Shown here piece after piece: positions 5,391 through 40,038 of a stretch of 64,000 nt of DNA; position 1 is the stretch's first letter; each line of letters opens with the position of its first letter. The translations under genes were made by a program, and so were the position numbers. The notes beneath the pieces are model-generated. The model was not told where the DNA came from and did no database searches. It worked only from the letters and a program-made list of their open reading frames with translations. The DNA lies in IMG/VR virus record IMGVR_UViG_3300033146_001382, positions 124,001 through 188,000 of that record. One strand, given 5' to 3'. This DNA is from a virus.

Positions 5391-5449
5391 TAAAGTATCC
5401 TCTATATTAACAGAACTATATATTTAAATTTACAACGGGAGAGTACTTT

Positions 5450-25015: not shown

Positions 25016-25355
25016 CCTAGCATCTCATGCACGTAGGGAAACACTTAAACTAGAGCTTTTAGATCTACTTGTTGGTCTTGCAGATAAGCATTCTATCTTA
25101 CTAGATAAAGCTGCAAAAAAACATATGTATACATATATGGATCATATAGTCAAGAAATTGGATTTAGGAGAAGAACATAAAATACCTATTGAACGTATCA
25201 TAGTAGAAGAGGATTCTAAAGAACCTACTAGTTATGTAAAATACGAGGATGTAGTGACTTTAACTGATAAATTTAAAATTAAATTAGGTACAGTGCTTAT
25301 AGATTTAATGAGTTATGAGCTTGAGTTATTTCTTTCAAAGGAGTGTAATGACTAA
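24993..25355 (+). CDS. Unknown protein
   Basis: This protein is 120 residues from ATG 24993, with GGGAGGAG at 24978-24985. The reading frame is open 66 bases further upstream, inside the RuvC-like gene. It is mainly helical and charged (RRETLKLELLDLLVGLADKH, KKLDLGEEHKIPIERI). There is no cysteine cluster, signal peptide or known motif. It overlaps the RuvC-like gene upstream by 23 bases and the nuclease gene downstream by 8, which suggests co-expression with recombination proteins. Confidence 0.5.
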   Translation: MVTDSGCDLASHARRETLKLELLDLLVGLADKHSILLDKAAKKHMYTYMDHIVKKLDLGEEHKIPIERIIVEEDSKEPTSYVKYEDVVTLTDKFKIKLGTVLIDLMSYELELFLSKECND

Positions 25356-26553
25356 AAAAATAATTAAACTTAGTGCTACTAGAATAAGTTCTTATTTAAG
25401 ATGTAAACGTAAATACTGGTTTCAATATGTAGAACGTATGCCTAAGCTTTCCAACCCCGCTTTTAAATTAGGGTTGGCATGCCATGAATCGTTGGAACTA
25501 GCAGGTAAAATATGGATAGCGGATGGTAAATTTAGTAAGGCTGCATATAAAAAAATATTTAAATACTACGATCAGGTTTCTGTAAGAGAAGGTATAGAAG
25601 CTATGGAGGTGCACACTCAGGGCAAGGTACTAGTTAAAAATAGATTAGATAACTTTGCTTTAGGTACCAAAATAATAAGTCTTGAGGAGAAATTTGGATT
25701 TGGTAAGGACACTAAGGATGTGTTTACTTCCTTAGGTGTCCCGTTGATTGGTGCTATGGATAAAGTAGTAGAATTAGATCCTGAAACTATTGTAGTAGTA
25801 GATTATAAGACTTCGAAAACTGCTCCTACATATGAACAACTTAAAGAAGATTTACAATTGTCATTATATGACTTAGTAGCAGGCATACTTTTTCCACAAT
25901 ACCCTAGGGTGGTATTATGTTTAGATATGCTTAAGTCAGAGCCGGTATACACTTATAGAACTCCTTTTCAAAGAGAAGAGTTTAATAATTATTTATCAAT
26001 TATACATGAAGAGATGTCAGCACTTAAAGAGAAAGATGCATATGAGTCGTTAAATGTATTTTGTCCTTGGTGTGATTTTAAAGATCATTGTAATGCTTAT
26101 CAGAAAGCCAGTTCTCAGACTAAGTATGATTTTTTACCTTTATCTAAGATGAGTGACGCTGATTTAATAGAAGAACATGAGAGAGTTAAAGGTGTGGCTA
26201 AGATTTTAGATATGAGGAAAAGAGATTTGGCTATGATTCTTATGGAGAAAATAAAGATAGCTGGCACTGATTTAAAAGGCGGAGATAATCAGATGTATAT
26301 TAGACAAAGTGCTAGAACTAATTATGATGCCAAAGGGTTACATAAGTTAATTCCACCAGAAGAATTTGCTACTATGGTATCTTTAAACAAGAAGGCAGTA
26401 GATTCTTATTGCTCTAAACATCCTAAATTAAAAAAAGAAATAGAGAGAAATGCTACCACTAATTATACATCTCCATTTCTTGCAGTTAGAAAGATAAAGG
26501 AACCAAAAAAGAAAGTAACCACTAAAAAAATAGTTAAAAATAAAGGAGAATAG
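25348..26553 (+). CDS. RecB/Cas4-like PD-(D/E)XK exonuclease
   Basis: This protein is 401 residues from ATG 25348 (AAAGGAG at 25338-25344). The N-terminus LSATRISSYLRCKRKYWFQYVE is the classic start of the PDDEXK_1 family, followed by LGLACHESLE. The core is LIGAMDKVV...IVVVDYKTSK (D...D-x-K) and QLSLYDLVAG. The C-terminal cluster FCPWCDFKDHC, together with the N-terminal Cys, can hold a 4Fe-4S cluster as in Cas4 and AddB. Such phage enzymes resect DNA ends for recombination or repair. About 140 residues after the cluster form a charged extension unlike Cas4. No cas genes are nearby, so a CRISPR role is unlikely. Confidence 0.85.
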   Translation: MTKKIIKLSATRISSYLRCKRKYWFQYVERMPKLSNPAFKLGLACHESLELAGKIWIADGKFSKAAYKKIFKYYDQVSVREGIEAMEVHTQGKVLVKNRLDNFALGTKIISLEEKFGFGKDTKDVFTSLGVPLIGAMDKVVELDPETIVVVDYKTSKTAPTYEQLKEDLQLSLYDLVAGILFPQYPRVVLCLDMLKSEPVYTYRTPFQREEFNNYLSIIHEEMSALKEKDAYESLNVFCPWCDFKDHCNAYQKASSQTKYDFLPLSKMSDADLIEEHERVKGVAKILDMRKRDLAMILMEKIKIAGTDLKGGDNQMYIRQSARTNYDAKGLHKLIPPEEFATMVSLNKKAVDSYCSKHPKLKKEIERNATTNYTSPFLAVRKIKEPKKKVTTKKIVKNKGE

Positions 26554-26558
26554 TTTTA

Positions 26559-27866
26559 ATGAAAAAAAGAAAATTAAGTAAACAAGTTCAGCAGAAAAAA
26601 ATTAAAGTGTTAGCATATTGTGACTCACCATCATGTGCTACTGGTTTTGGTACAGTATCTAGAAATATATTTGAAGCTCTTTACAAGACTGGTAGGTATG
26701 AAATAGATATTCTAGGTATTAACTATTGGGGAGATCCACATGGTCTACCTTATCGGATATGGCCAACAGGTATTAATGGAGACAAGGACCCTTATGGGCG
26801 TAGAAAAGTTACAAGTATGATCCCACAGATGAAATACGATATATTATTTTTGTTACAGGATTCATTTATACTTGATTTCATGCCAGCACTTATGTCTCAG
26901 CTTAAGTCTTCCGGTAAAGAATTCAAATCTATTTGTTATTTCCCTATTGATGGTACACCTAAGTCACAGTGGATAGATAATGTAACTCAGGCTGATGAAG
27001 TAGTAGCTTATTCTCAATTTGGTGTAGATGCAGTTAAAGCTATTCAGCCCGATTGTAAGGATTTACATATTATTCCACACGGCGCTAATGTAAATGAATT
27101 TAGGCCCTTACCTAAAAAAGATGTTAAAGCTTTTAGAAATCAGTATTTTGGTAAACATGCTGATAGTTTCATTGTTACTAATTTGAATAGAAATCAGCAT
27201 AGAAAGGATATCCCGAGAACTATAGCGGCTTTTAAAAAGTTTAGAGAGTCAGTACCTAAATCTATTCTATACCTTCATATGGCATCTAAGGACCAGGGTT
27301 GGAATTTACCAGAGGTATGTAAATCTTATGGTTTTGATTTAGCAAATGATATTATTTTCCCAGAAAATTTTGGGCCCAATCAAGGATATCCTAGAGAGAT
27401 AGTTAATATGATTTATAATGCTTCTGATTTAGTTGTGAGTACTACTTTAGGTGAAGGATGGGGCCTATCTTGGGTAGAAGCTATGGCTGCTAAAACACCA
27501 GTACTTATGCCTAATAATACAGCTATAACTGAGAACATAAGTGCTGAGAGAGGGTACTTATGTGATAGTGGTACTAGTGCTGCTCTAACTACAGTTCTAG
27601 CTAATGATAATGAAGTAGTTAGGCCCTTGGTGGATGTAGAGGATATGGCTAATAAAATGGTGCATATAGCTAATAATTATGATGAAGCGCTAGCTAAAGC
27701 TGAAACAGCTTATAAATGGGTACATGATAATTTAAATTGGCAAGGTAATGTTGGCAAACAGTGGGTAGCTTTGTTTGATAAAGTGTACGCTGATTTAATA
27801 GAAGAAAAAATGTACGGTATTAGCTCTAGTACAGACAAAAAAACTATTAAAGCTGAAGTATTATAG
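26559..27866 (+). CDS. GT-B fold glycosyltransferase (GT4-like)
   Basis: This 435-residue protein starts at ATG 26559. The N-terminal Rossmann part begins KVLAYCDSPSCATGFGTVSR. The C-terminal half has IIPHGANVNEF, FIVTNLNRNQHRKDIPRTI and the sugar-nucleotide site ASDLVVSTTLGEGWGLSWVE, which contains the E-x7-E element of GT4 enzymes. It transfers a sugar from a nucleotide donor with retention. It is the first gene of the glycan island. The acceptor is unknown: host surface, virion or DNA base. About 30 residues at each end are low-complexity and lysine-rich. Confidence 0.85.
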   Translation: MKKRKLSKQVQQKKIKVLAYCDSPSCATGFGTVSRNIFEALYKTGRYEIDILGINYWGDPHGLPYRIWPTGINGDKDPYGRRKVTSMIPQMKYDILFLLQDSFILDFMPALMSQLKSSGKEFKSICYFPIDGTPKSQWIDNVTQADEVVAYSQFGVDAVKAIQPDCKDLHIIPHGANVNEFRPLPKKDVKAFRNQYFGKHADSFIVTNLNRNQHRKDIPRTIAAFKKFRESVPKSILYLHMASKDQGWNLPEVCKSYGFDLANDIIFPENFGPNQGYPREIVNMIYNASDLVVSTTLGEGWGLSWVEAMAAKTPVLMPNNTAITENISAERGYLCDSGTSAALTTVLANDNEVVRPLVDVEDMANKMVHIANNYDEALAKAETAYKWVHDNLNWQGNVGKQWVALFDKVYADLIEEKMYGISSSTDKKTIKAEVL

Positions 27867-27899
27867 TTTGTACTATAAGATTAGTAACTAATTAAGATA

Positions 27900-27944
27900 A
27901 TGACCGCAAGTCTAAGTAATTTTGATTACTATTCTTGCGGTCAT
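27900..27944 (+). promoter_or_regulatory. Nested RNA hairpin before the ThyX-like gene
   Basis: An 11-bp perfect stem (ATGACCGCAAG 27900-27910, CTTGCGGTCAT 27934-27944) encloses a second 6-bp stem (AGTAAT 27915-27920, ATTACT 27925-27930) with a TTTG loop. It has no following T-tract, so a standard terminator is unlikely. The ribosome site AAGGA and ATG 27960 lie just downstream. The ATG at 27900 within the stem is unlikely to be the gene start. It could be an RNA-processing, protein-binding or translational control element. Confidence 0.6.
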
Positions 27945-27959
27945 GGAATAAGGATTTCT

Positions 27960-28556
27960 ATGATTAAAGTAAAAAAACTAGCTGAAGATAAGAATAATTT
28001 TTTAGCTGCTTTATTAGGTATGGGATTGGCGTTTGATAAGACTATAGAAGGTCTGGATAAAGGTATTGATATATTTTTTCACTCTGATGGCTCTTATAAT
28101 AAATTGTACTTTACTATGTTGGATAGGGCAAAACGTATGTCATTTAAAGGTAGGGGCCATAATAAATTTCTTAGGGCTATCAATATTGATTTTATTATAC
28201 AAGCCCCCTGTGATTGGTGGCAACAACAAGCTACTTATACAACTGTAGCTGCAGTACAATCTACCAGTACTATGCATATGCTAAAAAAATCTGGATTGGC
28301 TAACGGGGTAGACCCTTTAGTAGATGAGCTTATACTGAAAAGATATAATGAACTTCTTAAAGAAACTAATGATTTAGTTGTGTTGAAACGAAATTTACCT
28401 TCTGGGTATATGTATATAAGGACTGTTCATTTAAATTATATGACTTTACAGCATATGGTAAATCAACGGCTTGAACATAAAGAACCAGAATGGCCAGAAT
28501 TTTGCAAACAGGTATTAAATCAGATAGATCACCCCTATTTAGTTTTAAAAGATTAA
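27960..28556 (+). CDS. ThyX-like protein, probably divergent or inactive
   Basis: This protein is 198 residues from ATG 27960 (TAAGGATTTCT before it). An upstream ATG at 27900 sits inside a strong hairpin and would add 20 unlikely residues. The segment FLRAINIDFIIQAPCDWWQQ followed by TYTTVAAVQSTSTMHML parallels the ThyX strand and loop holding RHRxxSxNxxSxRY. The later LP...NYMTLQHMVNQRLEHKEPEW parallels the ThyX helix that binds FAD and dUMP. The RHR triad is replaced, so flavin-dependent thymidylate synthesis may be lost or altered. It lies inside the glycan island, not with the nucleotide genes. The homology is inferred from pattern. Confidence 0.4.
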   Translation: MIKVKKLAEDKNNFLAALLGMGLAFDKTIEGLDKGIDIFFHSDGSYNKLYFTMLDRAKRMSFKGRGHNKFLRAINIDFIIQAPCDWWQQQATYTTVAAVQSTSTMHMLKKSGLANGVDPLVDELILKRYNELLKETNDLVVLKRNLPSGYMYIRTVHLNYMTLQHMVNQRLEHKEPEWPEFCKQVLNQIDHPYLVLKD

Positions 28557-28593
28557 TAAACTGACTTTATAATTTATAAAAGGATATATACAA

Positions 28594-29712
28594 ATGGAAA
28601 TAAAAGGAATAAAATATACTGGACCTATATTAGATAATTCTGGATATAGTAAGGCTTGTAGAGGTAATATTTTAGCTTTGTATCACGCAGGTGTACCTAT
28701 TACGCTTAATTCAATATCTTTTGAGTCAGCTCGTCCTGACCTAGGAGAAGATGGTAAAATTATTTATAGTTTGATAGATAAGAAAATAGATTACAATATC
28801 AATTTGATACATACTACACCTGAATTTTGGTCTCAGCATAAAGAGCGCACTGCTTGTAATATTGGGTATACTATATGGGAGACTACTAAACTACATGACG
28901 ATTGGCCTGACTATATTAATAACAATGTGGATAAAGTACTCGTTGGCTGTAAATGGAATGAGAGTGTATTTAAAAATAGTGGGGTTACTATCCCTATTGG
29001 GGTTGTGCCACATGGTATAAATATTAATGAGTTTAATACCATTGCACCATATCAAATAGCTGGTGTAAGGGATACTGATTTTGTATTTTATAGTATTTTC
29101 CAGTGGACTGAGCGGAAGTGCCCTTTAGCATTGCTGAAAGCATACTACCATGCTTTTCAAAACAATGAAGAGGTAGTATTAGTCTTGAAAGCCTATGGGA
29201 ATGATTACAGTGCAAAACAAAAACAGTCTATAGTTAATGCAATAAAACACTTAAAATGGAATATGCCTATGCCTGTATTTCCTAAAGTAGTATTAATAGG
29301 TAATATGCTAACAGAAGATGAAATATCTGCAGTTCACGCACGTGGAGATTGTTATGTATCTCTAGATAGAGGTGAGGGATTTGGTCTTAGTCCATTTACT
29401 GCCGGTGCAGCAGGTAATCCAATTATAGTGACAGGTTTTGGTGGATCAACTGAGTATGCTAAAGAAGATAATAGTTACTTAGTAGATTATACGCTTACAC
29501 CTGTTTATGGAATGCCATGGTCCAGGTGGTATAACGGTACCCAGCTTTGGGCAGAGCCAGATGTAATCGATGGCGCTAATAAAATGAAATATGTTTATGA
29601 GCACCAAGAGAATGCTAAAGTAAATGGACAAGGGCTACAGGAGTATATTAGAGAGAATTTTTCATGGGAAGTAATCGCTAGAAAGATTATCAGCGAGATT
29701 GAGGAGCTATAG
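28594..29712 (+). CDS. GT-B fold glycosyltransferase (GT4-like)
   Basis: This 372-residue protein starts at ATG 28594 behind AAAAGGATATATAC. Features are GPILDNSGYSKACRGNILAL (N-terminal donor/acceptor loop), VPHGININEF, FYSIFQWTERKCPLALLKAY and the nucleotide-sugar motif VSLDRGEGFGLSPF near residue 260. It is distinct from the GT-B protein at 26559 (low identity), so two different linkages are likely. No signal peptide or membrane segment is visible, so it is cytoplasmic. Confidence 0.85.
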   Translation: MEIKGIKYTGPILDNSGYSKACRGNILALYHAGVPITLNSISFESARPDLGEDGKIIYSLIDKKIDYNINLIHTTPEFWSQHKERTACNIGYTIWETTKLHDDWPDYINNNVDKVLVGCKWNESVFKNSGVTIPIGVVPHGININEFNTIAPYQIAGVRDTDFVFYSIFQWTERKCPLALLKAYYHAFQNNEEVVLVLKAYGNDYSAKQKQSIVNAIKHLKWNMPMPVFPKVVLIGNMLTEDEISAVHARGDCYVSLDRGEGFGLSPFTAGAAGNPIIVTGFGGSTEYAKEDNSYLVDYTLTPVYGMPWSRWYNGTQLWAEPDVIDGANKMKYVYEHQENAKVNGQGLQEYIRENFSWEVIARKIISEIEEL

Positions 29713-29721
29713 TAATAGCTA

Positions 29722-31134
29722 ATGGCCAGATTAATAGATATAGAAAGTATAAAGACTTTGTTTAAGAAAGATAATTATTTAGTATTATCTACTAAGTATA
29801 CACATTCTAAACAGAAGATTTCATATAAATGCCCTGATGGACATTTACACTCCATGCGACTTGACCATTGGAGGAGAGGTGTTAGATGTCCGTATTGTTC
29901 TGATAAGTTTAAAAAATCTATTGAGTACATAAGGCCATTTTTCGCACTAGAAGGTTATAACTTAATATCTGACACATATATAGACGCTAATACTAAATTA
30001 CACTTAGTTTGTCCTGAAGGGCATGATTATTACACTAGTTGGCATAACTGGAAATCAGGAAATCACAGGTGTTCAAAGTGTAATGGAGGTATACGTTTGG
30101 ACGCATCCAGTGTTAATAATGTATTTAGTAAAGAGGGCTATACTATGGTAGGTGCATATGGTAACTGTCACTCTCCTATCGAATGCCAATGCCCTGAAGG
30201 TCATACATATTTGGTCACATTTGGTAATTTTACATCTAAAAACACTAGGTGTACTGAATGTAGCGGTAATGGGGCGTCTTCTGGTGAAATTATGTTAAGG
30301 GATCACATTAAGTCTTTAGGGGTAGTAGCTATATACAACAATAGAAAATTAATAACCCCATTAGAACTTGATATAGTAATACCATCTAAGAAGATAGCTA
30401 TAGAATATTGTGGTTTGTATTGGCACTCAGAATTAAATGGAAAAGATAGAAAGTATCATTTAAATAAATTAAATCTGTGTCAAAAAATAGGTTATAAATT
30501 GATTACTATTTTTGAAGACGAGTTGTTATCTAATAAAGAAATTGTTTTTAGTAGATTAACATGTTTATTGTCCAAAACTACTAGTAAAGTATATGCACGT
30601 AAATGTTCAGTGCGTCAGATTTCCCCTAGATTGGCTAAGGAGTTTTGCTCAACTAATCATATGCAGGGATACGGAGCAGGGGCTTACATAAAATTAGGAG
30701 CGTTTTATAAAAATAATCTAGTAGCGGTTATGACTTTTGCTAAACCATCTATTGCTAAAGGGTATAATAGTAAATTAGAGGGTGTGTATGAGTTACATAG
30801 ATTTTGTAGTGTTAAGGATACTATTGTTGTAGGAATAGCTTCTAAACTGTTTAAATATTTTTTAAATAATTTTAAGTTTAATACTCTATTTTCCTACGCT
30901 GATAGACGATGGTCTACAGGAAATGTATATACTAAATTGGGGTTTGTTTTTAATAGTTATACTAGACCTAATTACTGGTACATTAAGGGTAAGAGAAGGA
31001 TTAATAGATTCTCTCTTAGGAAAACAGTTGCTGATAACCAAGATATTACAGAATGGGAAAATAGGCGTCTCGCAGGCTATGATAGAATATGGGATTGCGG
31101 TAATTTAAAATATGTGTATAAAAAAGGAGATTAA
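29722..31134 (+). CDS. Vsr-like (EDxHD-type) homing endonuclease with zinc-finger repeats and GNAT-like C-terminus
   Basis: This is a 470-residue protein. Three treble-clef zinc modules of form CPxGH...W..G.RCxxC lie at about residues 35-60, 95-120 and 155-180. They carry knuckles CPDGH/CPYC, CPEGH/CSKC and CPEGH/CTEC. The catalytic part reads LDIVIPSKKIAIEYCGLYWH...YHLNKLNLCQ..YKLITIFEDE, the arrangement of Vsr-fold homing nucleases with a D...E...H...E/D site. Residues ~290-430 (VSVRQIS-type CSVRQISPRLAKEFCSTNHM, ADRRWSTGNVYTKLGF) resemble the GNAT-like domain fused to many of these. The ribosome site is weak and the gene sits between island genes without partner overlap, as expected for a free-standing mobile gene. 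Confidence 0.8.
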   Translation: MARLIDIESIKTLFKKDNYLVLSTKYTHSKQKISYKCPDGHLHSMRLDHWRRGVRCPYCSDKFKKSIEYIRPFFALEGYNLISDTYIDANTKLHLVCPEGHDYYTSWHNWKSGNHRCSKCNGGIRLDASSVNNVFSKEGYTMVGAYGNCHSPIECQCPEGHTYLVTFGNFTSKNTRCTECSGNGASSGEIMLRDHIKSLGVVAIYNNRKLITPLELDIVIPSKKIAIEYCGLYWHSELNGKDRKYHLNKLNLCQKIGYKLITIFEDELLSNKEIVFSRLTCLLSKTTSKVYARKCSVRQISPRLAKEFCSTNHMQGYGAGAYIKLGAFYKNNLVAVMTFAKPSIAKGYNSKLEGVYELHRFCSVKDTIVVGIASKLFKYFLNNFKFNTLFSYADRRWSTGNVYTKLGFVFNSYTRPNYWYIKGKRRINRFSLRKTVADNQDITEWENRRLAGYDRIWDCGNLKYVYKKGD

Positions 31135-31138
31135 TTGT

Positions 31139-31624
31139 ATGAAGAAGACACTGAATATTGGGGCTGGTGAACGTGTGTACGCACATTACCCTACGGATAA
31201 TTATGAGTGTATTAATTTTGATGAGAGGGATTTAAAAAGTACTGATGTAGTAGGTGACGTAAGGGATTTAAGTATGTTCAATGATGAAGAGTTTGATTTT
31301 ATTTTAGCTAGTGATATTATAGAACATTTTCCAATTAAAGATGTACAAACTATATTAAAAGAATGGAGTAGAGTATTAAAACCTATTGGTGTTATTGAAT
31401 TTAGGCTTCCTAACTTAGCCGCCATTTGTAAGCAATATATTAATAAAAAAAATGCTAGAAATATTAGTTGGTTACTATATGGAGGGCAAGATTATTCAGG
31501 CAATTTTCATTATACTTGCTATGATAGGGGGCTGTTCACAGAAGAGTGTGAAAAAGCAGGATTTAGTATACTTACCTACAGTGAAGAAGGATTTAATATG
31601 GTAGTCCGTTGTAGGAAGAATTAA
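31139..31624 (+). CDS. SAM-dependent methyltransferase
   Basis: This protein is 161 residues from ATG 31139 (AGGAG at 31125-31129). The frame is open further upstream, inside the endonuclease gene. Class I fold marks are TLNIGAGE (motif I), VVGDVRDLSMF, FDFILASDIIEHF (motif IV with the acceptor-side His) and IGVIEFRLPNL. It belongs to the Methyltransf_11/UbiE-like group that often acts on glycans in polysaccharide gene clusters. It lies two bases before the next glycosyltransferase. The substrate is inferred to be a sugar or glycan. Confidence 0.8.
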   Translation: MKKTLNIGAGERVYAHYPTDNYECINFDERDLKSTDVVGDVRDLSMFNDEEFDFILASDIIEHFPIKDVQTILKEWSRVLKPIGVIEFRLPNLAAICKQYINKKNARNISWLLYGGQDYSGNFHYTCYDRGLFTEECEKAGFSILTYSEEGFNMVVRCRKN

Positions 31625-31625
31625 A

Positions 31626-32267
31626 ATGTCTCAATTAAAGCTAGTGAGTGCTAATTTTGTTAAAAATGAGGCTCATTGTATAGAATTAATGCTAGACTCA
31701 GTACAGCCATTTGTTGATGATAGTTATATTTTAGTTGATAAAGACACTACTGATAACACTGCAGATATCTGTAAATCTAGAGGCTGTAAAGTTGAATACT
31801 TTGAGTTTGAGAATTTTGCTAAAGTTTGGAATACGCTTTTATCTTGGGTTAACAGTGCTACAGATTGGACTATATTTATTGCTCCGGATGAAACTATTGA
31901 TGCAGAGTTTGGTAATTTTTTAAGGCCCGCTATCGAAAAGATGCATACTAAAACTACTGATGGTATGTGGTTTAGAAGGAAGCATTGGGTAGATTTAGAA
32001 AAAACTAAAGAATATACTGCACAAAATTGGTACCCTGATTGGCAATTACGTTTAATCAGAAACGACTACCCAAGAATACATTTAGTAAATTATGTGCATG
32101 AATGGCCCAAAGGTATACGAAAGACTATACGTACTAAAATGGATATACATCATTTTAATATGTATTGGAAACCGCGTTTAAATTATAATTTTGAAAAAAT
32201 GAATACTTTATATGCTAAATTACAGAAATTACAGAAGGAAGATGGCGGAGGTAATATTTGGCCATAA
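31626..32267 (+). CDS. GT2-like glycosyltransferase (GT-A fold)
   Basis: This 213-residue protein has the GT-A start LVSANFVKNEAHCIELMLDS, then DDSYILVDKDTTDNTADI (nucleotide-binding Asp), TIFIAPDETIDAEF (replacing the usual DADE metal motif by PDE) and a basic aromatic end. This short form with VKNE...W resembles Wzz-adjacent SunS/WaaE-type GT2 enzymes. The PDE variant leaves one acidic residue at the metal site. Activity is plausible but not certain. It is co-transcribed with the methyltransferase and dehydrogenase. Confidence 0.75.
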   Translation: MSQLKLVSANFVKNEAHCIELMLDSVQPFVDDSYILVDKDTTDNTADICKSRGCKVEYFEFENFAKVWNTLLSWVNSATDWTIFIAPDETIDAEFGNFLRPAIEKMHTKTTDGMWFRRKHWVDLEKTKEYTAQNWYPDWQLRLIRNDYPRIHLVNYVHEWPKGIRKTIRTKMDIHHFNMYWKPRLNYNFEKMNTLYAKLQKLQKEDGGGNIWP

Positions 32268-32277
32268 GGAGCTTAAT

Positions 32278-33285
32278 ATGAAAATAGTTATTGTCGGTGC
32301 AGGATACTGGGGAAAAAATTTAATTAGAACATTTAATAATCTTGGGGTTTTAGCTGCTATTTATGATTTGGATACTAAGGCTCTAGAACATTATAAGAAA
32401 GACTCTGCATATAGTAAAGTAGAATTTGGTACTGATTATACTAAGTGTTTACAACGTTGGGATATAGATGGAGTAGTAGTAGCTACTCCTCCAAACACTC
32501 ATTATAGTATTGCTTCTGAAGTTTTAAGTAGTGGTAAACATGTATTTATAGAAAAGCCTATGACTTTAGATGAGGAATCTTCTACACAATTAGTGGCTTT
32601 GGCAGAAGAGAAAAATAAAATCATTATGGTAGGGCATATTTTTCTTTATAGTCCAGAAATACTTAAATTAAAAGAGATTATTTCGGCAGAAACTTTTGGA
32701 GATATATGTTATGCATATACTCAACGGTTAAACTTAGGTAAAATTCAGGAATGTGGTGTTATAATGGATTTGGCTCCTCATGATGTGTCTATTTTAGATT
32801 ATTTACTAGATGACACTTGTGAAAAAGTAAAAACCGTAGCTGACTCTCATGTTATAGATAATGTAGAAGATGTTTCTTTTATAACATTACGTTATAAAAA
32901 AGGGACATTAGCACATTTACATTTAAGTTGGCTAGATCCTCTAAAAGTTAGAAACACTGTAGTAGTTGGTACTAAACAGATGGTAGTGTGTGATTCAGGT
33001 ACAAAAAAAATAGACATCTATAATACTTCAGTTGATTTTGATGGGATTAAACAAGCGTCTAATAGCTCTTATGGAGCACATTTACTTACGTATACATATG
33101 GCGATGTAGTAACTCCATTTATACCTAATGTAGAACCTATGAGGGCAGAAGCAGAAGAATTTTTAAATTGTATGAAATTAAATAAATTACCACTTGCAGA
33201 TGGATCATTAGGTTTAAGTGTAGTAAAGACTATAGTAGCTATGAAAAATTCTTTAAAGGGGAATGGAAAATGGCAGAAAGTATAA
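32278..33285 (+). CDS. Gfo/Idh/MocA sugar-nucleotide dehydrogenase (GnnA/WlbA-like)
   Basis: This protein is 335 residues from ATG 32278, with ATAAGGAGC before it. It shows NAD-binding MKIVIVGAGYWGKNLIRTF, DGVVVATPPNTHY and the family catalytic motif KHVFIEKPMT (Lys of EKP), followed by MVGHIFLYSP. Within polysaccharide clusters this family oxidises C3 of UDP-GlcNAc or its uronic acid (WlbA, GnnA). The nearby aminotransferase (38351) and LpxA-like protein (34106) supply the next steps of a 3-amino-sugar route. The fold and family are clear; the exact substrate is inferred. Confidence 0.85.
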   Translation: MKIVIVGAGYWGKNLIRTFNNLGVLAAIYDLDTKALEHYKKDSAYSKVEFGTDYTKCLQRWDIDGVVVATPPNTHYSIASEVLSSGKHVFIEKPMTLDEESSTQLVALAEEKNKIIMVGHIFLYSPEILKLKEIISAETFGDICYAYTQRLNLGKIQECGVIMDLAPHDVSILDYLLDDTCEKVKTVADSHVIDNVEDVSFITLRYKKGTLAHLHLSWLDPLKVRNTVVVGTKQMVVCDSGTKKIDIYNTSVDFDGIKQASNSSYGAHLLTYTYGDVVTPFIPNVEPMRAEAEEFLNCMKLNKLPLADGSLGLSVVKTIVAMKNSLKGNGKWQKV

Positions 33286-34103
33286 GTGCACACTTAATAA
33301 CACATCAATGTGTCACTCTAGATTTTTGTGTGGAATCTACTATTAGAAGTATGCTTGATTTCTGTGATGATATTTATATTAATGATGGAAAATCTACTGA
33401 TGGTACCTTGGATATTTTGTATTCATTACAAAATGAATATGGTAGAGATAGAATAAAATTGTTTGAACGAGAATGGCAACATAATAGACGTATGTGGGCG
33501 GACGAGAAGAATTTTATATTAGATAAGATACCACAAGATTCTTATGTCTTATGCATAGATGCTGACGAAGCTTTACATGAAAAAGATATACATAAGTTAA
33601 AAGAGCTGACTTCAAAGGGGTTTAAATCTATTTCTTTTAATGTAATACATTTTTATGGTAGACCTACTAATTTTATAGAAGGGCCAAATTGGTATAAAAG
33701 TCATACACGCTTATGGAAACGGTCTACAGGTATTAAGTTAATATGTAGGCCAGGTGGTTGTGCAGATGATGTAGTATGGCCCAACGGACAACCAGCTCAT
33801 ATAATTAATCATCAACCTAGTGGGATATCTATTTATCATTATGGTAATTGTAGAGATCCTAAAGCCCTTGGGATGAAAGCAAAAAAAGCTGATGATTTAT
33901 ATCAAAATAGTGATGAGTACAAAGGCGGGTTATTAGCTAAGCCCAGAGCATTTACATATGCTTTTGATTCTATTAAAACTCAAGTATTTAAAGGGACTCA
34001 TCCTAAGTATGTAAAAGAATGGTGTAAAATACATAATAATCAGCCAACAGAGTACTTAGTAGAGGGTGAACAGCAAAATAAATTATGGTGTTTTGAGGAG
34101 TAA
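33270..34103 (+). CDS. GT2-like glycosyltransferase
   Basis: This 277-residue protein starts at ATG 33270, overlapping the dehydrogenase end by 16 bases, with AAAGGGGAA as ribosome site. The GT-A core has DDIYINDGKSTDGTLDIL, then YVLCIDADEALHEKD, in which DADE is the metal-binding D-x-D element. A C-terminal region holds many His and Trp residues (HYGNCRDPKALGMKAKKADD). It is a cytoplasmic, inverting transferase. It likely adds one of the sugars made by the flanking enzymes. Confidence 0.8.
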   Translation: MAESISAHLITHQCVTLDFCVESTIRSMLDFCDDIYINDGKSTDGTLDILYSLQNEYGRDRIKLFEREWQHNRRMWADEKNFILDKIPQDSYVLCIDADEALHEKDIHKLKELTSKGFKSISFNVIHFYGRPTNFIEGPNWYKSHTRLWKRSTGIKLICRPGGCADDVVWPNGQPAHIINHQPSGISIYHYGNCRDPKALGMKAKKADDLYQNSDEYKGGLLAKPRAFTYAFDSIKTQVFKGTHPKYVKEWCKIHNNQPTEYLVEGEQQNKLWCFEE

Positions 34104-34105
34104 TT

Positions 34106-34726
34106 ATGACTATTATAATACATCCTACAGCGGTAGTTGAGACTACTAATATAGGAGAAGGGACTTATATAGGACCATTTACATATATTACCAAAAGAGT
34201 TAAGATAGGTAAAAATTGTATAATAAATAATGCTTCTATAGGGTTGCCTGGAGAACATCCTGAAATTGTGGAAGACCATGGACATTTTATAGAAATTGCA
34301 GACAACGTGACTATTAGAGAGTATGTTACTATTAACACACCATTATTCAGTAAAAGAACTTTTATAGGGGCTGGTAGTTACTTAATGGCTAAGTCTCATG
34401 TAGGACATGATGCTTCATTAGGAAAACATGTAGTATTACATACTGGTGCAGTAATAGGGGGGCATTCTACTATAGGTGACTATTGCTATTTAGGACTTAA
34501 TTGCTCTACCCATCCATTTGCTAGATTAGATAGTTATTGTATAGTTGGGGCAAATGGTATTTATAAAGGTAAATCTCCATCAGCATTAGTTTGGGTGGGA
34601 GTTCCAGCTGTTCCAATTAAAATTAATATGGTAGGGCTCGATAGGCATTGCAAAGAGGGATTAAAACAGACTTTAATTGCTAATGCAGAAGTATTTTTAA
34701 ATAGAGGGGGAACGAAAAATAAATGA
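34106..34726 (+). CDS. LpxA-like left-handed beta-helix acyltransferase
   Basis: This 206-residue protein contains hexapeptide repeats from IIHPTAVVETTNIGEGTYIG onward. The central AKSHVGHDASLGKHVVL matches the LpxA catalytic-His region (HIAHD), and VPAVPIKINMVGLDRHCKE matches the LpxA C-terminal AxPxGVNxxGLxRR segment. LpxA (~262 residues) transfers an acyl chain to the 3-position of UDP-GlcNAc or UDP-GlcNAc3N. This shorter form has a reduced C-terminal helical domain and may acetylate instead, as in QdtC- or WlbB-type enzymes. Its place between a GnnA-like dehydrogenase and a GnnB-like aminotransferase supports action on a 3-amino sugar. Confidence 0.8.
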   Translation: MTIIIHPTAVVETTNIGEGTYIGPFTYITKRVKIGKNCIINNASIGLPGEHPEIVEDHGHFIEIADNVTIREYVTINTPLFSKRTFIGAGSYLMAKSHVGHDASLGKHVVLHTGAVIGGHSTIGDYCYLGLNCSTHPFARLDSYCIVGANGIYKGKSPSALVWVGVPAVPIKINMVGLDRHCKEGLKQTLIANAEVFLNRGGTKNK

Positions 34727-35667
34727 GGTTAATTTGTGCAACACCTATGTATAATGAATTAAATCATGTCCACGAATTCATTAATAATGTAGTTAGTCTT
34801 GACATATATGATGAAGTGGTTATATTGGATGATGGGAGTACTGATGGTACATATGAAATACTATTAGATTATACTAAAAAATATAATAATTTACATGTTT
34901 TTAGAAATGATACTAATAGTATTTTATCGCATGGGTATAATAGATGGACTAGATTATCTGAGTTGGTACGGGAGTTTAATCCTACTTGGGTAAATCTTAG
35001 AGCGGCTGATACTAAATATTCTTATCAATGTAGTTTATTTATGAGAGATAGATTAATAAAACTCATGAATGAAGATATCCAATTGATCAGCCTCCCATGG
35101 GTGAATATATGGAGATCTAAAACCTGGTATCGTACAGATGGTCATTGGGGTAATTGGGCAAGACACGGAGTAGTACCTATCTGGAGATTTAGTGATAAGT
35201 TTAAATGGCACCCACAGCACACCAAGACAGGTATGCATCAGGGTATGTGTATACCATCAGATTTAGGTTTTAATGGGAAGAGATCTGTAGCCGGTTTAAA
35301 TACTGATTCTAATTTGCCAATGGTTATTCTTCATGAAGGTTTGAGTACCCATGAGCAGATAGTGGATAAGTTTAGAAACTGTATGAGTTTAGCTAGAGCA
35401 GCTACTAAGATAGGAAGATCTAGAACCATGCCACCACCAGAAAATATGCCATCAGTAAACTCATGGCGTAATTTTGATGGGTACAAAGCATTTTATGAGT
35501 TTAATATTACATTAAAGCCTATCAATATGGAATGGTTATTCCCATCAGATAGATTAGAACTAGAGCCAAGTCCTATACCTAGATCATTATATGAGGTAAT
35601 AAATGAGTTTAGCCCTGTGAGGGCAGAGGAATATAAAATACTATTTAATAAGAGGTTTGTTATATGA
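34723..35667 (+). CDS. GT2-like glycosyltransferase with altered metal motif
   Basis: This 314-residue protein overlaps the previous stop (ATGA). The core is RLICATPMYNELNHVHEFIN, DEVVILDDGSTDGTYEIL, then WVNLRAADTKYSYQC where the D-x-D element would be. Only one Asp (AAD) is kept, so metal use may differ. The middle is Trp-rich (WVNIWRSKTWYRTDGHWGNW). It overlaps the following methyltransferase by four bases. A promoter-like TTGACA-N16-TATATT lies within codons 26-35 (34799-34826). Confidence 0.75.
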   Translation: MRLICATPMYNELNHVHEFINNVVSLDIYDEVVILDDGSTDGTYEILLDYTKKYNNLHVFRNDTNSILSHGYNRWTRLSELVREFNPTWVNLRAADTKYSYQCSLFMRDRLIKLMNEDIQLISLPWVNIWRSKTWYRTDGHWGNWARHGVVPIWRFSDKFKWHPQHTKTGMHQGMCIPSDLGFNGKRSVAGLNTDSNLPMVILHEGLSTHEQIVDKFRNCMSLARAATKIGRSRTMPPPENMPSVNSWRNFDGYKAFYEFNITLKPINMEWLFPSDRLELEPSPIPRSLYEVINEFSPVRAEEYKILFNKRFVI

Positions 35668-36332
35668 AATTAAATTATAAGAAAGCACCTAGAGAATTTT
35701 TTGAATCTTACCATAATAAATATGATGACGAACGTACTTTGATTAATCCTGATTGGGAATGGTGGAGAGTAAAATATCACTATAATTTAGTAGAGAATGA
35801 CATTATGTACTGGTTGTTAGCTACTAATCAATCTATGTCGGATATGTCTATTTTGGATATTGGTGGTGGTACAGGTCATTGGTTGGATTTTTATACTAAT
35901 TATTTAGAGTCTCTTAACATTACCATGTTAGATTTTTCTGAAGTGGTAGTAAAACGATTACGAAAAAAGTATCCTAAAATTAAAATACAACATTCTAATG
36001 TTGCTACTAAACAGTCACAATTTAGTAATAAATTTGATGTGATAAATGCAATAGGGGTAATGTTTCATTTAGTAGATGATTCTATGTGGGAATCTGCTGT
36101 GATTAATCTATGTGCATATTTAAAAAGTGGTGGTGTAGCTATTATAGGAGGTGAATTCGGGATTAACACCTATCAAGTTAGTCATCATAGAGTAGCTAGA
36201 TCTTTAGAGTATTGGAAATCAGTAGTTGAAGCTAATGATTGTAAGATTGTTGGTGTAAAACAAAATAATTGGGTTTCTGGTATCTCTAATAACGGTATAA
36301 TGGACAATACATTAGCATTCACTAGGAGATAA
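35664..36332 (+). CDS. SAM-dependent methyltransferase
   Basis: This 222-residue protein starts at ATG 35664 (ATGA overlap). Motif I is MSILDIGGGTGHWLDFY and motif II is TMLDFSEVVV. FDVINAIGVMFHLVDD is the motif IV region and GGVAIIGGEFG follows. It belongs to the Methyltransf_12/25-type class I group, and the N-terminus is aromatic and charged (REFFESYHNKYDDERT). The substrate is probably a glycan intermediate, by location between a glycosyltransferase and the FemAB-like fusion. Confidence 0.8.
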   Translation: MKLNYKKAPREFFESYHNKYDDERTLINPDWEWWRVKYHYNLVENDIMYWLLATNQSMSDMSILDIGGGTGHWLDFYTNYLESLNITMLDFSEVVVKRLRKKYPKIKIQHSNVATKQSQFSNKFDVINAIGVMFHLVDDSMWESAVINLCAYLKSGGVAIIGGEFGINTYQVSHHRVARSLEYWKSVVEANDCKIVGVKQNNWVSGISNNGIMDNTLAFTRR

Positions 36333-36333
36333 T

Positions 36334-37527
36334 ATGTCAAATTACATTGGCAAAGATTTTATTCATTATGGTTGCGGTTTGGAGATAAATTCAGAAGTAG
36401 TACTATCTTCAATTCCTAGAAGCTCAAAAAAAAATATTAAAAAGGCTGAAACCTCTGATATAATTGTGACTAATGTCATAGGCACAGCTGAAGAATTAGA
36501 AGACCTTAGGGGTATTTGGTATTATTATGACGACCCTAATTTTCCCCAGTATGATAAAAATAATTTAGTATATATGGCGTACTTAAATGAGGAGCTTATT
36601 GGTGGAGCTATATTAGTTCCAGTAGGAAACCATTTATTTCTTAATAACCTAATGGCTTCTGCAGTAGGAAAAAAATATCAATTACAAGGGTATCTTTTAT
36701 GGTATATTGTAAATAATTTAATTACTTCACGGTTTAAATATATTGATGTGGGTGTTTCATATAGATTTAATTTATATAGTTTTTTTAAGAAATGGGCTAC
36801 TTTCCATTATCCGGTTATTTTTAATCCACCAAAAATTGGCCCTCATATTAAATTTACACCTTTTAAAAGTATTGAGAATTTAACTAATGCTAAAGTAAAT
36901 AATGATATTATAAATAGTTTTTTTAAAAATAGACCATTTACTATTGTACCAGACATAAATTATGCTAATACTATAGCAGAGAAAGAATCAATTATAATAA
37001 ATAGAACAATTGATGAATTTACATCACCTATTAAGCATGATCTAGAGCCTATAGAAATTATAGATTTGACTGAATTGCTCCCTTTGCAGTTTGGTGCAGT
37101 GGTTGTTGGTATGGAAGTATCACCTGAAAGACTATGGGAAAAGTATGCATGTTATGACCATTATAAAACTGAATATATAAAAAAGTATATTTCTAAAGAT
37201 TCTAAGTTGTATGAAGGTATAAAAGAACAACGAAGACATGTATATGAATTATTTAATAATTATTTTAGTCAAGAAGATGTTACTATCATACATACTTCTA
37301 AATTTATAACTGGTTTTGAATTTTCATGTAAAGATATTAAATTATTGTCTAAACGTTATACTAGATTTAAAGTAGCACATAAATTAACTAGTAGTACTTT
37401 AATTTTCCCCTGCCATCAAAATATCTCTGAGGTGGACGTAGAATATATTTATGCCATTTACAGAGGGTATTTGAATTTATGTAGTGAGTGGGAGTCTACT
37501 GGTGTTAAAGGGGTATTGAAGATATGA
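36334..37527 (+). CDS. FemAB/GNAT-like N-acyltransferase fused to a degenerate DegT aminotransferase end
   Basis: This 397-residue protein has two parts. Residues ~20-170 (SIPRSSKKNIKKAE, VYMAYLNEELIGGAILVPVG, YLLWYIVNNLITSRFKYIDV, YSFFKKWATFHYPV) have the FemAB/GNAT layout of peptidyl- or amino-sugar N-acyltransferases. Residues ~230-397 (LPLQFGAVVVGMEVSPERLW, IKEQRRHVYELFNNYF, TLIFPCHQNISEVDVEYIYA) match the C-terminal small domain of DegT/StrS aminotransferases, which normally ends with an LPCHQ-type motif. The PLP-lysine region is absent, so the second half cannot be an active aminotransferase. The fusion may recognise the product of the real aminotransferase at 38351. Confidence 0.6.
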   Translation: MSNYIGKDFIHYGCGLEINSEVVLSSIPRSSKKNIKKAETSDIIVTNVIGTAEELEDLRGIWYYYDDPNFPQYDKNNLVYMAYLNEELIGGAILVPVGNHLFLNNLMASAVGKKYQLQGYLLWYIVNNLITSRFKYIDVGVSYRFNLYSFFKKWATFHYPVIFNPPKIGPHIKFTPFKSIENLTNAKVNNDIINSFFKNRPFTIVPDINYANTIAEKESIIINRTIDEFTSPIKHDLEPIEIIDLTELLPLQFGAVVVGMEVSPERLWEKYACYDHYKTEYIKKYISKDSKLYEGIKEQRRHVYELFNNYFSQEDVTIIHTSKFITGFEFSCKDIKLLSKRYTRFKVAHKLTSSTLIFPCHQNISEVDVEYIYAIYRGYLNLCSEWESTGVKGVLKI

Positions 37528-38348
37528 AAAATATTATAATAAATGGATTTGATAGATGTGGATCTTCTATGATATGTAGAGTGCTAGCTAAACATCCAGA
37601 TGTGTCTATGTTATTTCAACCTACTAATAGTACAGAGATACATAAGGATTTATTTAGATATTGGCATCCAGAAGAAGTACATGATGCTACATATTCTTTT
37701 TTTAGCTCTTTAATAGAAAATAAATTAGATAAAAACTATATTAAATCTATATGGTTTGATAAATATAGTAAATTAAAAAGTGGAGCTTCTATTAATTTAA
37801 TAAAAGAAACTAAATGTCATTTAAAGATTGAGTGGTTACGCTATAATTTTCCAGATATAATTGTTTATGGTATATGGAGGGACCCTAAAGGTATACTCTG
37901 TTCTTTGGTTAGAAATAATTTTCATGAGGATTGGTATAAAACACATTTAAATACATCAGAGTCTGCACATATTAAAGTAATAGAATTATTAAAAGTTTTA
38001 AATAGATACTCTGAATTTGAGGAAGTGTATAATTTAACTTCCAGTTCAATAGATAAAATGGCTTTCGTTATATCTGTGATGGTACAATTAATGGCAGAGA
38101 AGCTTCAGCCTACTGAATGGTTAATATATGAGGATATAGTATTAGATCCAAATAAATTTTATAATTTATTTTTAGGTAAATTTGGTTTACCTTATTATGA
38201 TTTTAATTCTTATATGAAAAAACCATATAATGTTAGTGGCCATATGGATAATATAAATCCTTTTATTTGGAAAACTACATTTTCAAAAAAGCAAGTAGAT
38301 AAATTAGACATATTATTTAATAATTTATATTGTATAGCAAAGGAGTAA
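37524..38348 (+). CDS. Sulfotransferase
   Basis: This 274-residue protein starts at ATG 37524 (ATGA overlap). The 5'-phosphosulfate loop is IINGFDRCGSSMICRVLAKH and the 3'-phosphate site is IVYGIWRDPKGILCSLVRNN (R-D-P...S). Both are diagnostic of PAPS-dependent sulfotransferases. The C-terminus has basic FSKKQVDKLD near the family's GxxGxWK-like region but without clear glycines. It would transfer sulfate to a glycan, here probably the product of the neighbouring transferases. PAPS must come from the host, because no PAPS synthase genes are seen. Confidence 0.8.
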   Translation: MKNIIINGFDRCGSSMICRVLAKHPDVSMLFQPTNSTEIHKDLFRYWHPEEVHDATYSFFSSLIENKLDKNYIKSIWFDKYSKLKSGASINLIKETKCHLKIEWLRYNFPDIIVYGIWRDPKGILCSLVRNNFHEDWYKTHLNTSESAHIKVIELLKVLNRYSEFEEVYNLTSSSIDKMAFVISVMVQLMAEKLQPTEWLIYEDIVLDPNKFYNLFLGKFGLPYYDFNSYMKKPYNVSGHMDNINPFIWKTTFSKKQVDKLDILFNNLYCIAKE

Positions 38349-38350
38349 TA

Positions 38351-39469
38351 ATGAGTGTAAATTTTTTAGATTTAAAAAAACAGTATAGTAATATAGATAT
38401 CCCAAAATTAATGGTGGGGTTAGAAGAAATTGTAACTAATGGAGCATTTGTAGGAGGACCACATGTTGAGTTATTTGAGCATAATTTTGCTCAATATCAC
38501 AATATGAAGTATGCCTTAGGTGTGGGTTCAGGCACTGACGCACTAATATTTGCTTTAGCAGGTCTAGGGATTGGTCCTGGAGATGAGGTGCTTATACCAG
38601 GTAATACATTTATAGCTACAGCTCTAGCAGTAACACATGTAGGTGCTACTCCAGTATTTGTAGATGTGAATTCACTTACTTATAATATAGATTATAATAT
38701 TTCCAATTATATTACAAGGAAAACTAAGGCTATTATACCAGTACATTTATATGGAAATCCAGTCAATATGGATAATATCATGAGTGTAGCTAAGCTTGCC
38801 AATCTATTTGTTATTGAAGATTGTGCTCAAGCTATAGGTGCAAAATTTAAGGGCCAGAAGGTAGGGACATTTGGAGATGTAGGGTGTTTCTCTTTCTACC
38901 CCGCTAAAAATCTAGGAGGTTTAGGGCAAGGCGGGGCTATCATAACCAATAATAAATTTGTTTTAAATAAAGCTAGATGCCTTGGTAATGTAGGTAGAAA
39001 GGATGACTCTTGGTATGAGTACAGTGCCGTGGGCTATAACTCTAGATTAGACGCAGTAAATGCTTTATTTCTAAATACATGTTTAAATCATATAGACAAA
39101 TGGAATACTAAACGTAGATCAGTAGCTAAAAAATATAAGGATAACTTAGAGGCGTGTACAGGAGTTGCGGTACCTTTCATAGATACAGGCTGTACCCCCG
39201 TGTACCATTTATATGAACTTAAATGTGAAAATAGTATGGAAAGAGATAACCTAAAGGCCTATTTAGCAGGACATGATATTTATTCAGCACTTCATTACCC
39301 TGTACCATGTCATAAACAAGAAGTATATAAGGAATCAAATGGTTTAGTTTTAGGTGTAGTTGAGTCATTAGCTGCTACTTTACTATCATTACCTATGCAT
39401 CCTTTCATGACTACTGCTGAAATAGAAACAGTTACTACTATAATTAAAGAGTACTTTAATAAGGGATAA
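38351..39469 (+). CDS. DegT/DnrJ/EryC1/StrS PLP aminotransferase (GnnB/WlbE-like)
   Basis: This protein is 372 residues from ATG 38351 (AAGGAG at 38339-38344). Features are VNFLDLKKQYSNI, the glycine-rich site ALGVGSGTDALIFAL, VIEDCAQAIGAKFKG (cofactor Asp) and the PLP lysine in FSFYPAKNLGGLGQGG. The C-terminal domain has ALHYPVPCHKQEVYK. The family aminates keto-sugar nucleotides. The pairing with a Gfo/Idh/MocA dehydrogenase and an LpxA-like protein is the gene set for 2,3-diamino-sugar synthesis. Confidence 0.9.
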   Translation: MSVNFLDLKKQYSNIDIPKLMVGLEEIVTNGAFVGGPHVELFEHNFAQYHNMKYALGVGSGTDALIFALAGLGIGPGDEVLIPGNTFIATALAVTHVGATPVFVDVNSLTYNIDYNISNYITRKTKAIIPVHLYGNPVNMDNIMSVAKLANLFVIEDCAQAIGAKFKGQKVGTFGDVGCFSFYPAKNLGGLGQGGAIITNNKFVLNKARCLGNVGRKDDSWYEYSAVGYNSRLDAVNALFLNTCLNHIDKWNTKRRSVAKKYKDNLEACTGVAVPFIDTGCTPVYHLYELKCENSMERDNLKAYLAGHDIYSALHYPVPCHKQEVYKESNGLVLGVVESLAATLLSLPMHPFMTTAEIETVTTIIKEYFNKG

Positions 39470-39475
39470 ATTAAA

Positions 39476-39970
39476 ATGGATTTTAGTAATATTGATATAA
39501 TAGTTAGTGAGATAGACGGCATTCTTACAGATGGCTTCAAACCTATAGATAATATGAATCTATGCCTGTTTAAAAACTATTGTGTGCAGGATTTTGAAGC
39601 CATTAATAAGTTGAAACAGTTTTTTACAGTGGTATTCATCTCTACTGATTCTGATGTGAGTTATAATGTAATGAGATCTAGGAGTATACCTGCCTATTTT
39701 ACTAAATCTAAGGAAACTAAGCTAGAGGTATTGACTAAAAAAATTATGCCTAGGTATAATATGTCTCCAAACAACTTATTATACTTAGGTAATAAATTAT
39801 CTGATGTACCATGTATGTATTATGCTGATTGTAGTCTTACTATAGCTGAAGCTACTAATAAAGTAGTCTGTGCAGCTAAGAAGGTACTCCCTATCAGTTC
39901 TGGTACAGGGGTATTTACTAAACTATATGAAATACTTTCCCCTGAGCTAGACAGAAGGGCTAGACAATAG
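39476..39970 (+). CDS. KdsC-like HAD protein with substituted catalytic residues
   Basis: This 164-residue protein follows the layout of KdsC-type phosphatases (3-deoxy-octulosonate-8-phosphate phosphatase, also fused to CMP-sugar synthetases). IIVSEIDGILTDG corresponds to the usual DVDGVLTDG. VVFISTDSD takes the place of ISGR. LLYLGNKLSDVPCM takes the place of YIGDDxxDLP. The nucleophile Asp is replaced by Glu and the motif IV Asp pair by Asn-Lys. The phosphatase reaction is therefore probably impaired and a binding role is likelier. It ends the glycan island, just before a promoter. Confidence 0.65.
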   Translation: MDFSNIDIIVSEIDGILTDGFKPIDNMNLCLFKNYCVQDFEAINKLKQFFTVVFISTDSDVSYNVMRSRSIPAYFTKSKETKLEVLTKKIMPRYNMSPNNLLYLGNKLSDVPCMYYADCSLTIAEATNKVVCAAKKVLPISSGTGVFTKLYEILSPELDRRARQ

Positions 39971-40001: not shown

Positions 40002-40038
40002 TAAAAGTTGAAATTAATTTTAGTTAAAAGAGGTGTAT

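What the first reader, a model, noticed from the sequence alone, without database searches (positions are those of the whole stretch)
26559..39970. Phage-encoded amino-sugar and glycan island
Sequence shows a Gfo/Idh/MocA dehydrogenase, a DegT-type aminotransferase with PLP Lys and an LpxA-like acyltransferase with the catalytic His. They sit among two GT-B and three GT-A glycosyltransferases, two methyltransferases and a sulfotransferase. In bacteria the pair GnnA-GnnB plus LpxA makes 3-acylamino sugars for lipid A-like glycans. A complete route with decoration enzymes in a phage suggests it remodels host surface glycan (superinfection exclusion), glycosylates virions or modifies DNA.
Basis: partly seen in the sequence, partly recalled or inferred. 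Interest (0 to 1): 0.8.

Follow-up and report, generated by a model that had tools for sequence, protein, structure and literature searches.

The report
Exchangeable phage glycan-building locus
An undescribed group of large phages carries, inside its DNA-replication genes, a two-enzyme sugar-transfer core plus a swappable set of sugar-making genes; in this phage the set builds an amino sugar, and whether the finished sugar chain goes on the phage's own DNA or on its particles is not known.

Summary
In detail: 26559-39970 holds a Gfo/Idh dehydrogenase, a DegT aminotransferase with its lysine, an LpxA-like acyltransferase with its histidine, two GT-B and three GT-A glycosyltransferases, two methyltransferases and a sulfotransferase.

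The island is one allele of a hypervariable glycan locus. In 80 related IMG/VR loci the order PD-(D/E)XK nuclease - GT4a - GT4b recurs. Between the two GTs there is either nothing (36 of 61 groups) or nearly always a thymidylate-synthase-type enzyme (23 of 25 filled slots), of three kinds. The part between GT4b and the HAD/clamp-loader genes is exchangeable cargo: the closest relative (GT4a 85% identical) has an L-FucNAc-type sugar trio there instead of Gfo-DegT.

No membrane protein is encoded, which argues against surface-polysaccharide assembly. The best-supported reading is a soluble pathway that builds an oligosaccharide on an intracellular acceptor. The replication-gene setting and the synthase slot favour the phage's own DNA (about 0.4); a virion protein (about 0.33) is not excluded. 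Acceptor, donor sugars and host are unproved.

The parts
25315..26553 (+). PD-(D/E)XK nuclease, fixed upstream neighbour of the locus
   Evidence: PF12705 6e-23; upstream of GT4a in all 80 related loci as annotated
26559..27866 (+). GT4a, retaining GT-B glycosyltransferase, universal core
   Evidence: PF00534/PF20706; AF2 pLDDT 88.5; best PDB fold B736L 3oy2 E 4e-23
27900..28556 (+). divergent ThyX-family protein in the slot between the two GTs
   Evidence: relatives hit Pfam Thy1 8e-6; AF2 pLDDT 85.5, the 50 best PDB folds listed are all ThyX; RHR motif replaced
28594..29712 (+). GT4b, second GT-B glycosyltransferase, universal core
   Evidence: PF13692 8e-7; best PDB sequence match B736L 3oy2
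29722..31134 (+). homing endonuclease (zinc ribbons, nuclease, Mom-like C-terminal domain); probably a mobile passenger
   Evidence: phrog_559 1.5e-116, phrog_1384, PF25680
31112..31624 (+). methyltransferase MT1, common in relatives
   Evidence: PF08241 1e-10
31626..32267 (+). GT2-type glycosyltransferase (GT-A)
   Evidence: PF00535 2e-5; 46-68% identity in relatives
32278..33285 (+). Gfo/Idh/MocA dehydrogenase, predicted UDP-GlcNAc 3-dehydrogenase (ORF opens at 32212; the family starts at 32278)
   Evidence: NF040723 2.6e-51; EKP motif conserved
33270..34103 (+). GT2-type glycosyltransferase (GT-A)
   Evidence: PF00535 5e-10
34106..34726 (+). LpxA-like left-handed beta-helix acyltransferase
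   Evidence: TIGR01852 1.3e-33; PDB LpxA 3r0s 1.5e-19
34723..35667 (+). GT2-type glycosyltransferase (GT-A)
   Evidence: PF00535 1e-12
35664..36332 (+). methyltransferase MT2
   Evidence: PF13649 7e-13
36334..37527 (+). GNAT/FemAB-like protein, possible N-acyltransferase; no family hit
   Evidence: no Pfam, PHROG or NCBIfam hit; 22% match to a gene near a bacterial Gfo-DegT locus, L283; fold assigned by eye only
37524..38348 (+). sulfotransferase
   Evidence: PF13469 1e-7; sulfotransferases also in islands of L014, L017, L022, L024
38351..39469 (+). DegT aminotransferase, C3-type
   Evidence: PF01041 4e-103; QdtB, WbpE and DesV class among best PDB hits; Lys conserved
39476..39970 (+). KdsC-like HAD protein, conserved pseudo-phosphatase
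   Evidence: TIGR01670 9e-11; nucleophile Asp replaced by Glu in 12 of 12
40033..41097 (+). clamp loader, fixed downstream neighbour
   Evidence: PF13177 4e-24

Best explanation
The island is a soluble, phage-encoded glycan-assembly locus in the replication module. GT4a and GT4b, with MT1 and the HAD pseudo-enzyme, are the conserved core; the genes between GT4b and the HAD are exchangeable cargo that decides which sugars are used. Here the cargo oxidises UDP-GlcNAc at C3 (Gfo/Idh), transaminates it (DegT) and probably N-acylates it (LpxA-like, or the GNAT-like protein); GT-A enzymes then extend the chain and methyl and sulfo groups are added. The most likely acceptor is the phage's own DNA, through a pyrimidine made or altered by the ThyX/ThyA-type enzyme in the slot between the GTs, giving a sugar-coated genome that resists nucleases. 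Shown: gene content, conservation, slot, cargo exchange, absence of membrane proteins. Inferred: each enzyme's substrate, and above all the acceptor.
For: Gene families; C3-amino-sugar pair; Gfo and DegT both present in 8 of 8 islands read through to the HAD that hold either, both absent in 3 others; PD-(D/E)XK - GT4a - GT4b order in 80 loci; the GT slot is empty or filled by a synthase: 10 ThyA-like, 8 divergent ThyX, 5 canonical ThyX, 2 other of 25; ThyX fold of the window's slot protein; replication setting with beta clamp, RecA, primase, RuvC upstream and clamp loader, PolA, dUTPase, NT5C, dCMP deaminase downstream; no membrane protein among 104 island ORFs of relatives apart from one of 84 aa; cargo exchange in the closest relative; inteins at the catalytic GEGxGL motif of both GTs.
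Against: No test of the acceptor was possible. GT4a/GT4b are not basic (median pI 5.9). T4 DNA glucosyltransferases are not among the 50 best folds; the best is chlorovirus B736L. Canonical ThyX in five slots suggests plain dTMP supply, and most of the ThyX-like family occurs in phages without these GTs. 36 of 61 groups have no synthase in the slot. No TET/JBP hydroxylase in 22 records. Recombination between the flanking GT genes could swap slot genes without any functional link.
Confidence: 0.4

Rival explanations
1. The same soluble pathway glycosylates a virion protein (capsid or tail), as chloroviruses and mimiviruses do with their own enzymes; the cargo varies because the virion glycan is under diversifying selection.
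For: Best sequence and fold match of GT4a, and best PDB sequence match of GT4b, is chlorovirus B736L; a 31% identical GT4a homologue of phage S-CBS4 lies between portal and capsid genes; GT4a/b lack the basic character expected of a DNA enzyme; glycosylated capsid and tail proteins are known in mycobacteriophages (as cited in PMC12619734).
Against: The acceptor of B736L is itself unknown (PMC9614988) and T4 alpha-GT also matches it strongly (PMC6024577, table 3), so the match does not discriminate. The locus lies with replication genes, not structural genes, and its slot prefers thymidylate-synthase-type genes.
Confidence: 0.33
2. The genes alter the host's surface glycan during infection, to exclude other phages.
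For: Enzymes of this kind are typical of O-antigen and capsule loci; cyanophage clusters have been given this reading (PMC7824862).
Against: No flippase, polymerase, ligase, GtrA or membrane-anchored GT in the window's island, and no multi-pass membrane protein in seven relatives.
Confidence: 0.12
3. The ThyX/ThyA-type gene simply supplies dTMP and is an unrelated passenger between two GT genes; the GT locus sits near replication genes by historical accident. (Not exclusive: it is compatible with any acceptor.)
For: Five slots hold canonical ThyX with RHRxxS; jumbo phages commonly carry either TS or ThyX (PMC7824862); flanking homology would allow repeated swaps.
Against: 23 of 25 filled slots are synthases of three different kinds and little else; the window's version has lost the RHR motif and differs further from its family.
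Confidence: 0.4

Closest known systems
WbpB-WbpE-WbpD (WlbA-WlbE-WlbB) and archaeal UDP-GlcNAc 3-dehydrogenase/aminotransferase pathway
   Same: Gfo/Idh dehydrogenase paired with a C3 DegT aminotransferase and, in relatives, WbpD-type hexapeptide acyltransferases
   Different: No WbpA-type C6 dehydrogenase found in the island; the window lacks the two hexapeptide enzymes of its relatives; acceptor not a surface polysaccharide as far as the genes show
GnnA-GnnB-LpxA (GlcN3N lipid A route)
   Same: Dehydrogenase, aminotransferase and an LpxA-like acyltransferase in one operon
   Different: LpxA-like protein is 206 aa against 262, not an LpxA equivalog; no other lipid A gene in the island; in L014 the LpxA-like gene coexists with the usual acyltransferases
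T-even DNA glycosylation (gene 42 hydroxymethylase, alpha-gt, beta-gt) and arabinosylating relatives
   Same: Soluble GT-B enzymes beside a thymidylate-synthase-superfamily or ThyX gene inside the replication module
   Different: GT4 enzymes not specifically close to T4 GTs by fold; multi-step sugar synthesis and decoration; synthase activity unproved
Autonomous virion glycosylation of chloroviruses and mimiviruses
   Same: Virus-encoded nucleotide-sugar enzymes and soluble GTs; GT4a is closest in fold to chlorovirus B736L
   Different: Phage, replication-embedded, with synthase slot and cargo exchange; no capsid acceptor shown
Glycosyltransferase core of moraphages (PMC12619734)
   Same: Uncultured large phages with several GTs in the core genome
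   Different: Moraphages have a family B DNA polymerase; this group has family A with this locus; no genome of that study was compared here

Membership tests
C3-amino-sugar (Wbp/Gnn-type) pathway | 3-dehydrogenase of the UDP-GlcNAc type with EKP and catalytic His | tested here: met
   NF040723 best of all families, 2.6e-51 but 175 bits against a 450 cut-off; motif 11 of 11
C3-amino-sugar (Wbp/Gnn-type) pathway | DegT aminotransferase of the C3 class with PLP Lys | tested here: met
   best PDB relatives include QdtB, DesV-type and WbpE, ahead of the C4 enzyme ArnB; Lys 8 of 8
C3-amino-sugar (Wbp/Gnn-type) pathway | N-acyltransferase acting on the 3-amine | tested here: inconclusive
   LpxA-like protein present, but WbpD-type proteins of relatives are absent in the window
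LpxA | LpxA equivalog score and full-length C-terminal domain | tested here: not met
   TIGR01852 116 bits against cut-off 231; 206 aa
ThyX (flavin-dependent thymidylate synthase) | ThyX fold | tested here: met
   top 50 PDB hits all ThyX, TM up to about 0.70
ThyX (flavin-dependent thymidylate synthase) | RHRxxS flavin/dUMP motif | tested here: not met
   DTY family-wide, ATY in the window
Phage DNA glycosylation system | sugar on a base of phage DNA | not testable with these tools
   needs LC-MS of DNA
Phage DNA glycosylation system | enzyme making a hydroxylated base (hydroxymethylase or TET/JBP) | tested here: inconclusive
   ThyX/ThyA-type gene present, product unknown; no TET/JBP
Phage DNA glycosylation system | GTs of a known DNA-GT family | tested here: not met
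   no T4 GT among top 50 folds of GT4a
Virus-encoded virion glycosylation | GT close to virion-glycosylating viral GTs | tested here: inconclusive
   closest to B736L, whose acceptor is unknown (PMC9614988)
Surface O-antigen conversion or polysaccharide locus | membrane GT, flippase or polymerase | tested here: not met
   hydropathy only
HAD phosphatase (KdsC) | catalytic nucleophile Asp | tested here: not met
   Glu in 12 of 12

The most novel reading that the evidence does not exclude
A whole phage group carries on its genomic DNA oligosaccharides built from exchangeable, 'serotype-like' cassettes (3-amino-3-deoxy sugar in one phage, L-FucNAc-type in its close relative, with sulfate, methyl and acyl groups), attached through a pyrimidine made by a repurposed ThyX- or ThyA-type enzyme.
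Probability: 0.28. Interest if true: 0.88.

Novelty: new variant of a known kind. Interest (0 to 1): 0.6.

Why it matters
If the acceptor is DNA, this is DNA modification with a diversity like that of bacterial O-antigens, shaped by arms races with nucleases and DNA glycosylases, and a source of new DNA-glycosylating enzymes. If it is a virion protein, it is a bacterial-virus counterpart of the autonomous glycosylation of giant viruses. Either way, a fixed two-GT core with exchangeable sugar cassettes in the replication module makes the question testable with one isolate or with purified GT4a.

Tried and rejected
Profile search of the ThyX-like alignment against PDB sequences found nothing; only the fold search was decisive. 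Hydroxylation by TET/JBP looked for, absent. Isoelectric points as a sign of DNA binding: not informative, slightly against. B736L similarity first looked like evidence for virion glycosylation, but its acceptor is unknown and T4 alpha-GT matches it too. Moraphages considered as the same lineage and set aside because of their family B polymerase. The HAD protein as a sugar phosphatase: rejected, nucleophile lost. A DegT-like C-terminus of the 36334 protein was suspected by eye and not tested. The paper on viral GTs that hypermodify DNA with diverse glycans (Pyle 2024, known here only as a citation) is not held and was not read.
Full report
What is there. The window is bases 124001-188000 of a 189,441-base IMG/VR virus record. 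The dehydrogenase is nearest to the UDP-GlcNAc 3-dehydrogenase family (NF040723, 2.6e-51, below its strict cut-off), the aminotransferase to C3-aminotransferases such as QdtB, DesV and WbpE, the hexapeptide protein to LpxA. Four genes were missed: a divergent ThyX at 27900, a homing endonuclease with a Mom-like domain at 29722, a GNAT-like protein at 36334, and a KdsC-like HAD protein at 39476.

Setting. Upstream lie beta clamp, RecA, DnaB helicase, primase, RuvC and a PD-(D/E)XK nuclease; downstream clamp loader, family A DNA polymerase, dUTPase, ribonucleotide reductase, 5'-nucleotidase, RNase HII, Dam, ligase and dCMP deaminase (DnaB and the reductase are named by eye from the translations). 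So the glycan genes are inside the replication module.

Comparative anatomy. Scans of IMG/VR found relatives of the dehydrogenase, clamp loader, ThyX-like protein and GT4a. In 80 GT4a loci the nuclease precedes GT4a, and GT4b follows wherever the contig is long enough, with few exceptions. Grouped at 95% GT4a identity there are 67 groups, 61 of them with GT4b: in 36 the two GTs are adjacent; in 25 something lies between, and in 23 of those it is a thymidylate-synthase-type gene: 10 ThyA-like (best NCBIfam model the archaeal thymidylate synthase TIGR03283), 8 divergent ThyX-like, 5 canonical ThyX with an RHRxxS motif (the five were labelled 'other' by the script's stricter motif and are assigned). 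In 12 of 16 records tested first, exactly one of the ThyA-like or divergent ThyX-like types was found, never both. The otherwise closely similar loci L012 and L013 differ by a ThyA/ThyX swap at this spot.

The slot protein. Two relatives reach Pfam's Thy1 threshold. The AF2 model (pLDDT 85.5) has ThyX structures as all of its 50 best PDB matches. The RHR motif of ThyX is DTY across most of the family and ATY in the window's clade, so the chemistry may differ. The family is common in phages without these GTs.

Cargo exchange. Between GT4b and the HAD gene the content varies. L011, L013, L014, L017, L024, L161 and L165 have Gfo and DegT with differing acyltransferases, sulfotransferases, Asp/Glu racemases and further GTs. 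The closest relative (GT4a 85%, clamp loader 82%, HAD 73%) has neither: it carries a WecB-type 2-epimerase (above cut-off), a PseB/FnlA-type dehydratase and an RmlD-like reductase, the composition of L-FucNAc-type pathways, with a sulfotransferase, methyltransferases and other GTs. L203 has the core and almost no cargo. This resembles serotype-cassette exchange.

The amino-sugar pair in cellular genomes. Of 80 bacterial and archaeal loci with the nearest dehydrogenases (33-40% identity), 49 have a DegT homologue within 2.5 kb, often with a small hexapeptide gene nearby. The phage pair is thus a real pathway pair. The window lacks the two hexapeptide enzymes common in its relatives, so which enzyme acylates the amine, or whether it stays free, is open.

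Membrane proteins. Hydropathy scanning of the window's island found no membrane segment; among 104 plus-strand ORFs in seven relatives there was one clear segment, in an 84-aa ORF, and four marginal ones in proteins of soluble families. This speaks against surface-polysaccharide assembly.

The HAD protein. In 12 of 12 sequences the nucleophile Asp is Glu, and motif IV is degenerate. It persists where Gfo and DegT are absent, so it belongs to the GT core, not to the amino-sugar route. Its role is unexplained.

GT core. GT4a's model (pLDDT 88.5) is best matched by chlorovirus B736L (E 4e-23; next 7e-18); T4 DNA glucosyltransferases are not in the top 50. B736L's acceptor is unknown (PMC9614988), and T4 alpha-GT matches it strongly by HHpred (PMC6024577), so this does not decide. 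In L017 inteins interrupt both GTs at the same catalytic motif, GEGxGL, a sign that the site is strongly conserved.

Verdict. Anatomy, conservation and cargo exchange are well supported (about 0.9). The C3-amino-sugar route is likely (about 0.75). The acceptor is unresolved: own DNA about 0.4, virion protein about 0.33, host surface about 0.12, other about 0.15. Known work on phage DNA glycosylation and on viral glycosylation makes this a new variant of a known kind.

Noticed in passing
L017:1125-3677 and 4328-7924; L011:7096-9288; L014:5823-8063: Inteins with LAGLIDADG domains inside GT4 glycosyltransferases; in L017 both paralogues are cut at GEGxGL, and GT4b carries a second one.
   Followed up: partly
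window 39476-39970 and relatives: KdsC-like HAD protein with nucleophile Asp replaced by Glu in all 12 sequences, retained next to the clamp loader even without amino-sugar genes.
   Followed up: partly
window 17956-20100, 41407-44619; L003:11986-15033: Inteins in RecA, DNA polymerase A and a 1015-aa ORF of unassigned function: the phage is rich in inteins.
   Followed up: no
window 56146-58293: 715-aa protein with several PAS domains, unusual in a phage.
   Followed up: no
window 51376-52203: RlaP-type nucleotidyltransferase (RNA repair) near the DNA ligase.
   Followed up: no
L004:8857-9633 (record 46857-47633): Sulfatase/phosphodiesterase-superfamily protein outside the island, possibly linked to sulfated glycans.
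   Followed up: no
L011:15309-15608, L017:16508-17188: Asp/Glu racemase-family genes in the cargo of relatives, suggesting D-amino acid decoration.
   Followed up: no
L038-L112, most loci: Widespread phage family phrog_6721 (unknown function) is a divergent ThyX with DTY in place of RHR, often near dUTPase or DNA polymerase.
   Followed up: partly
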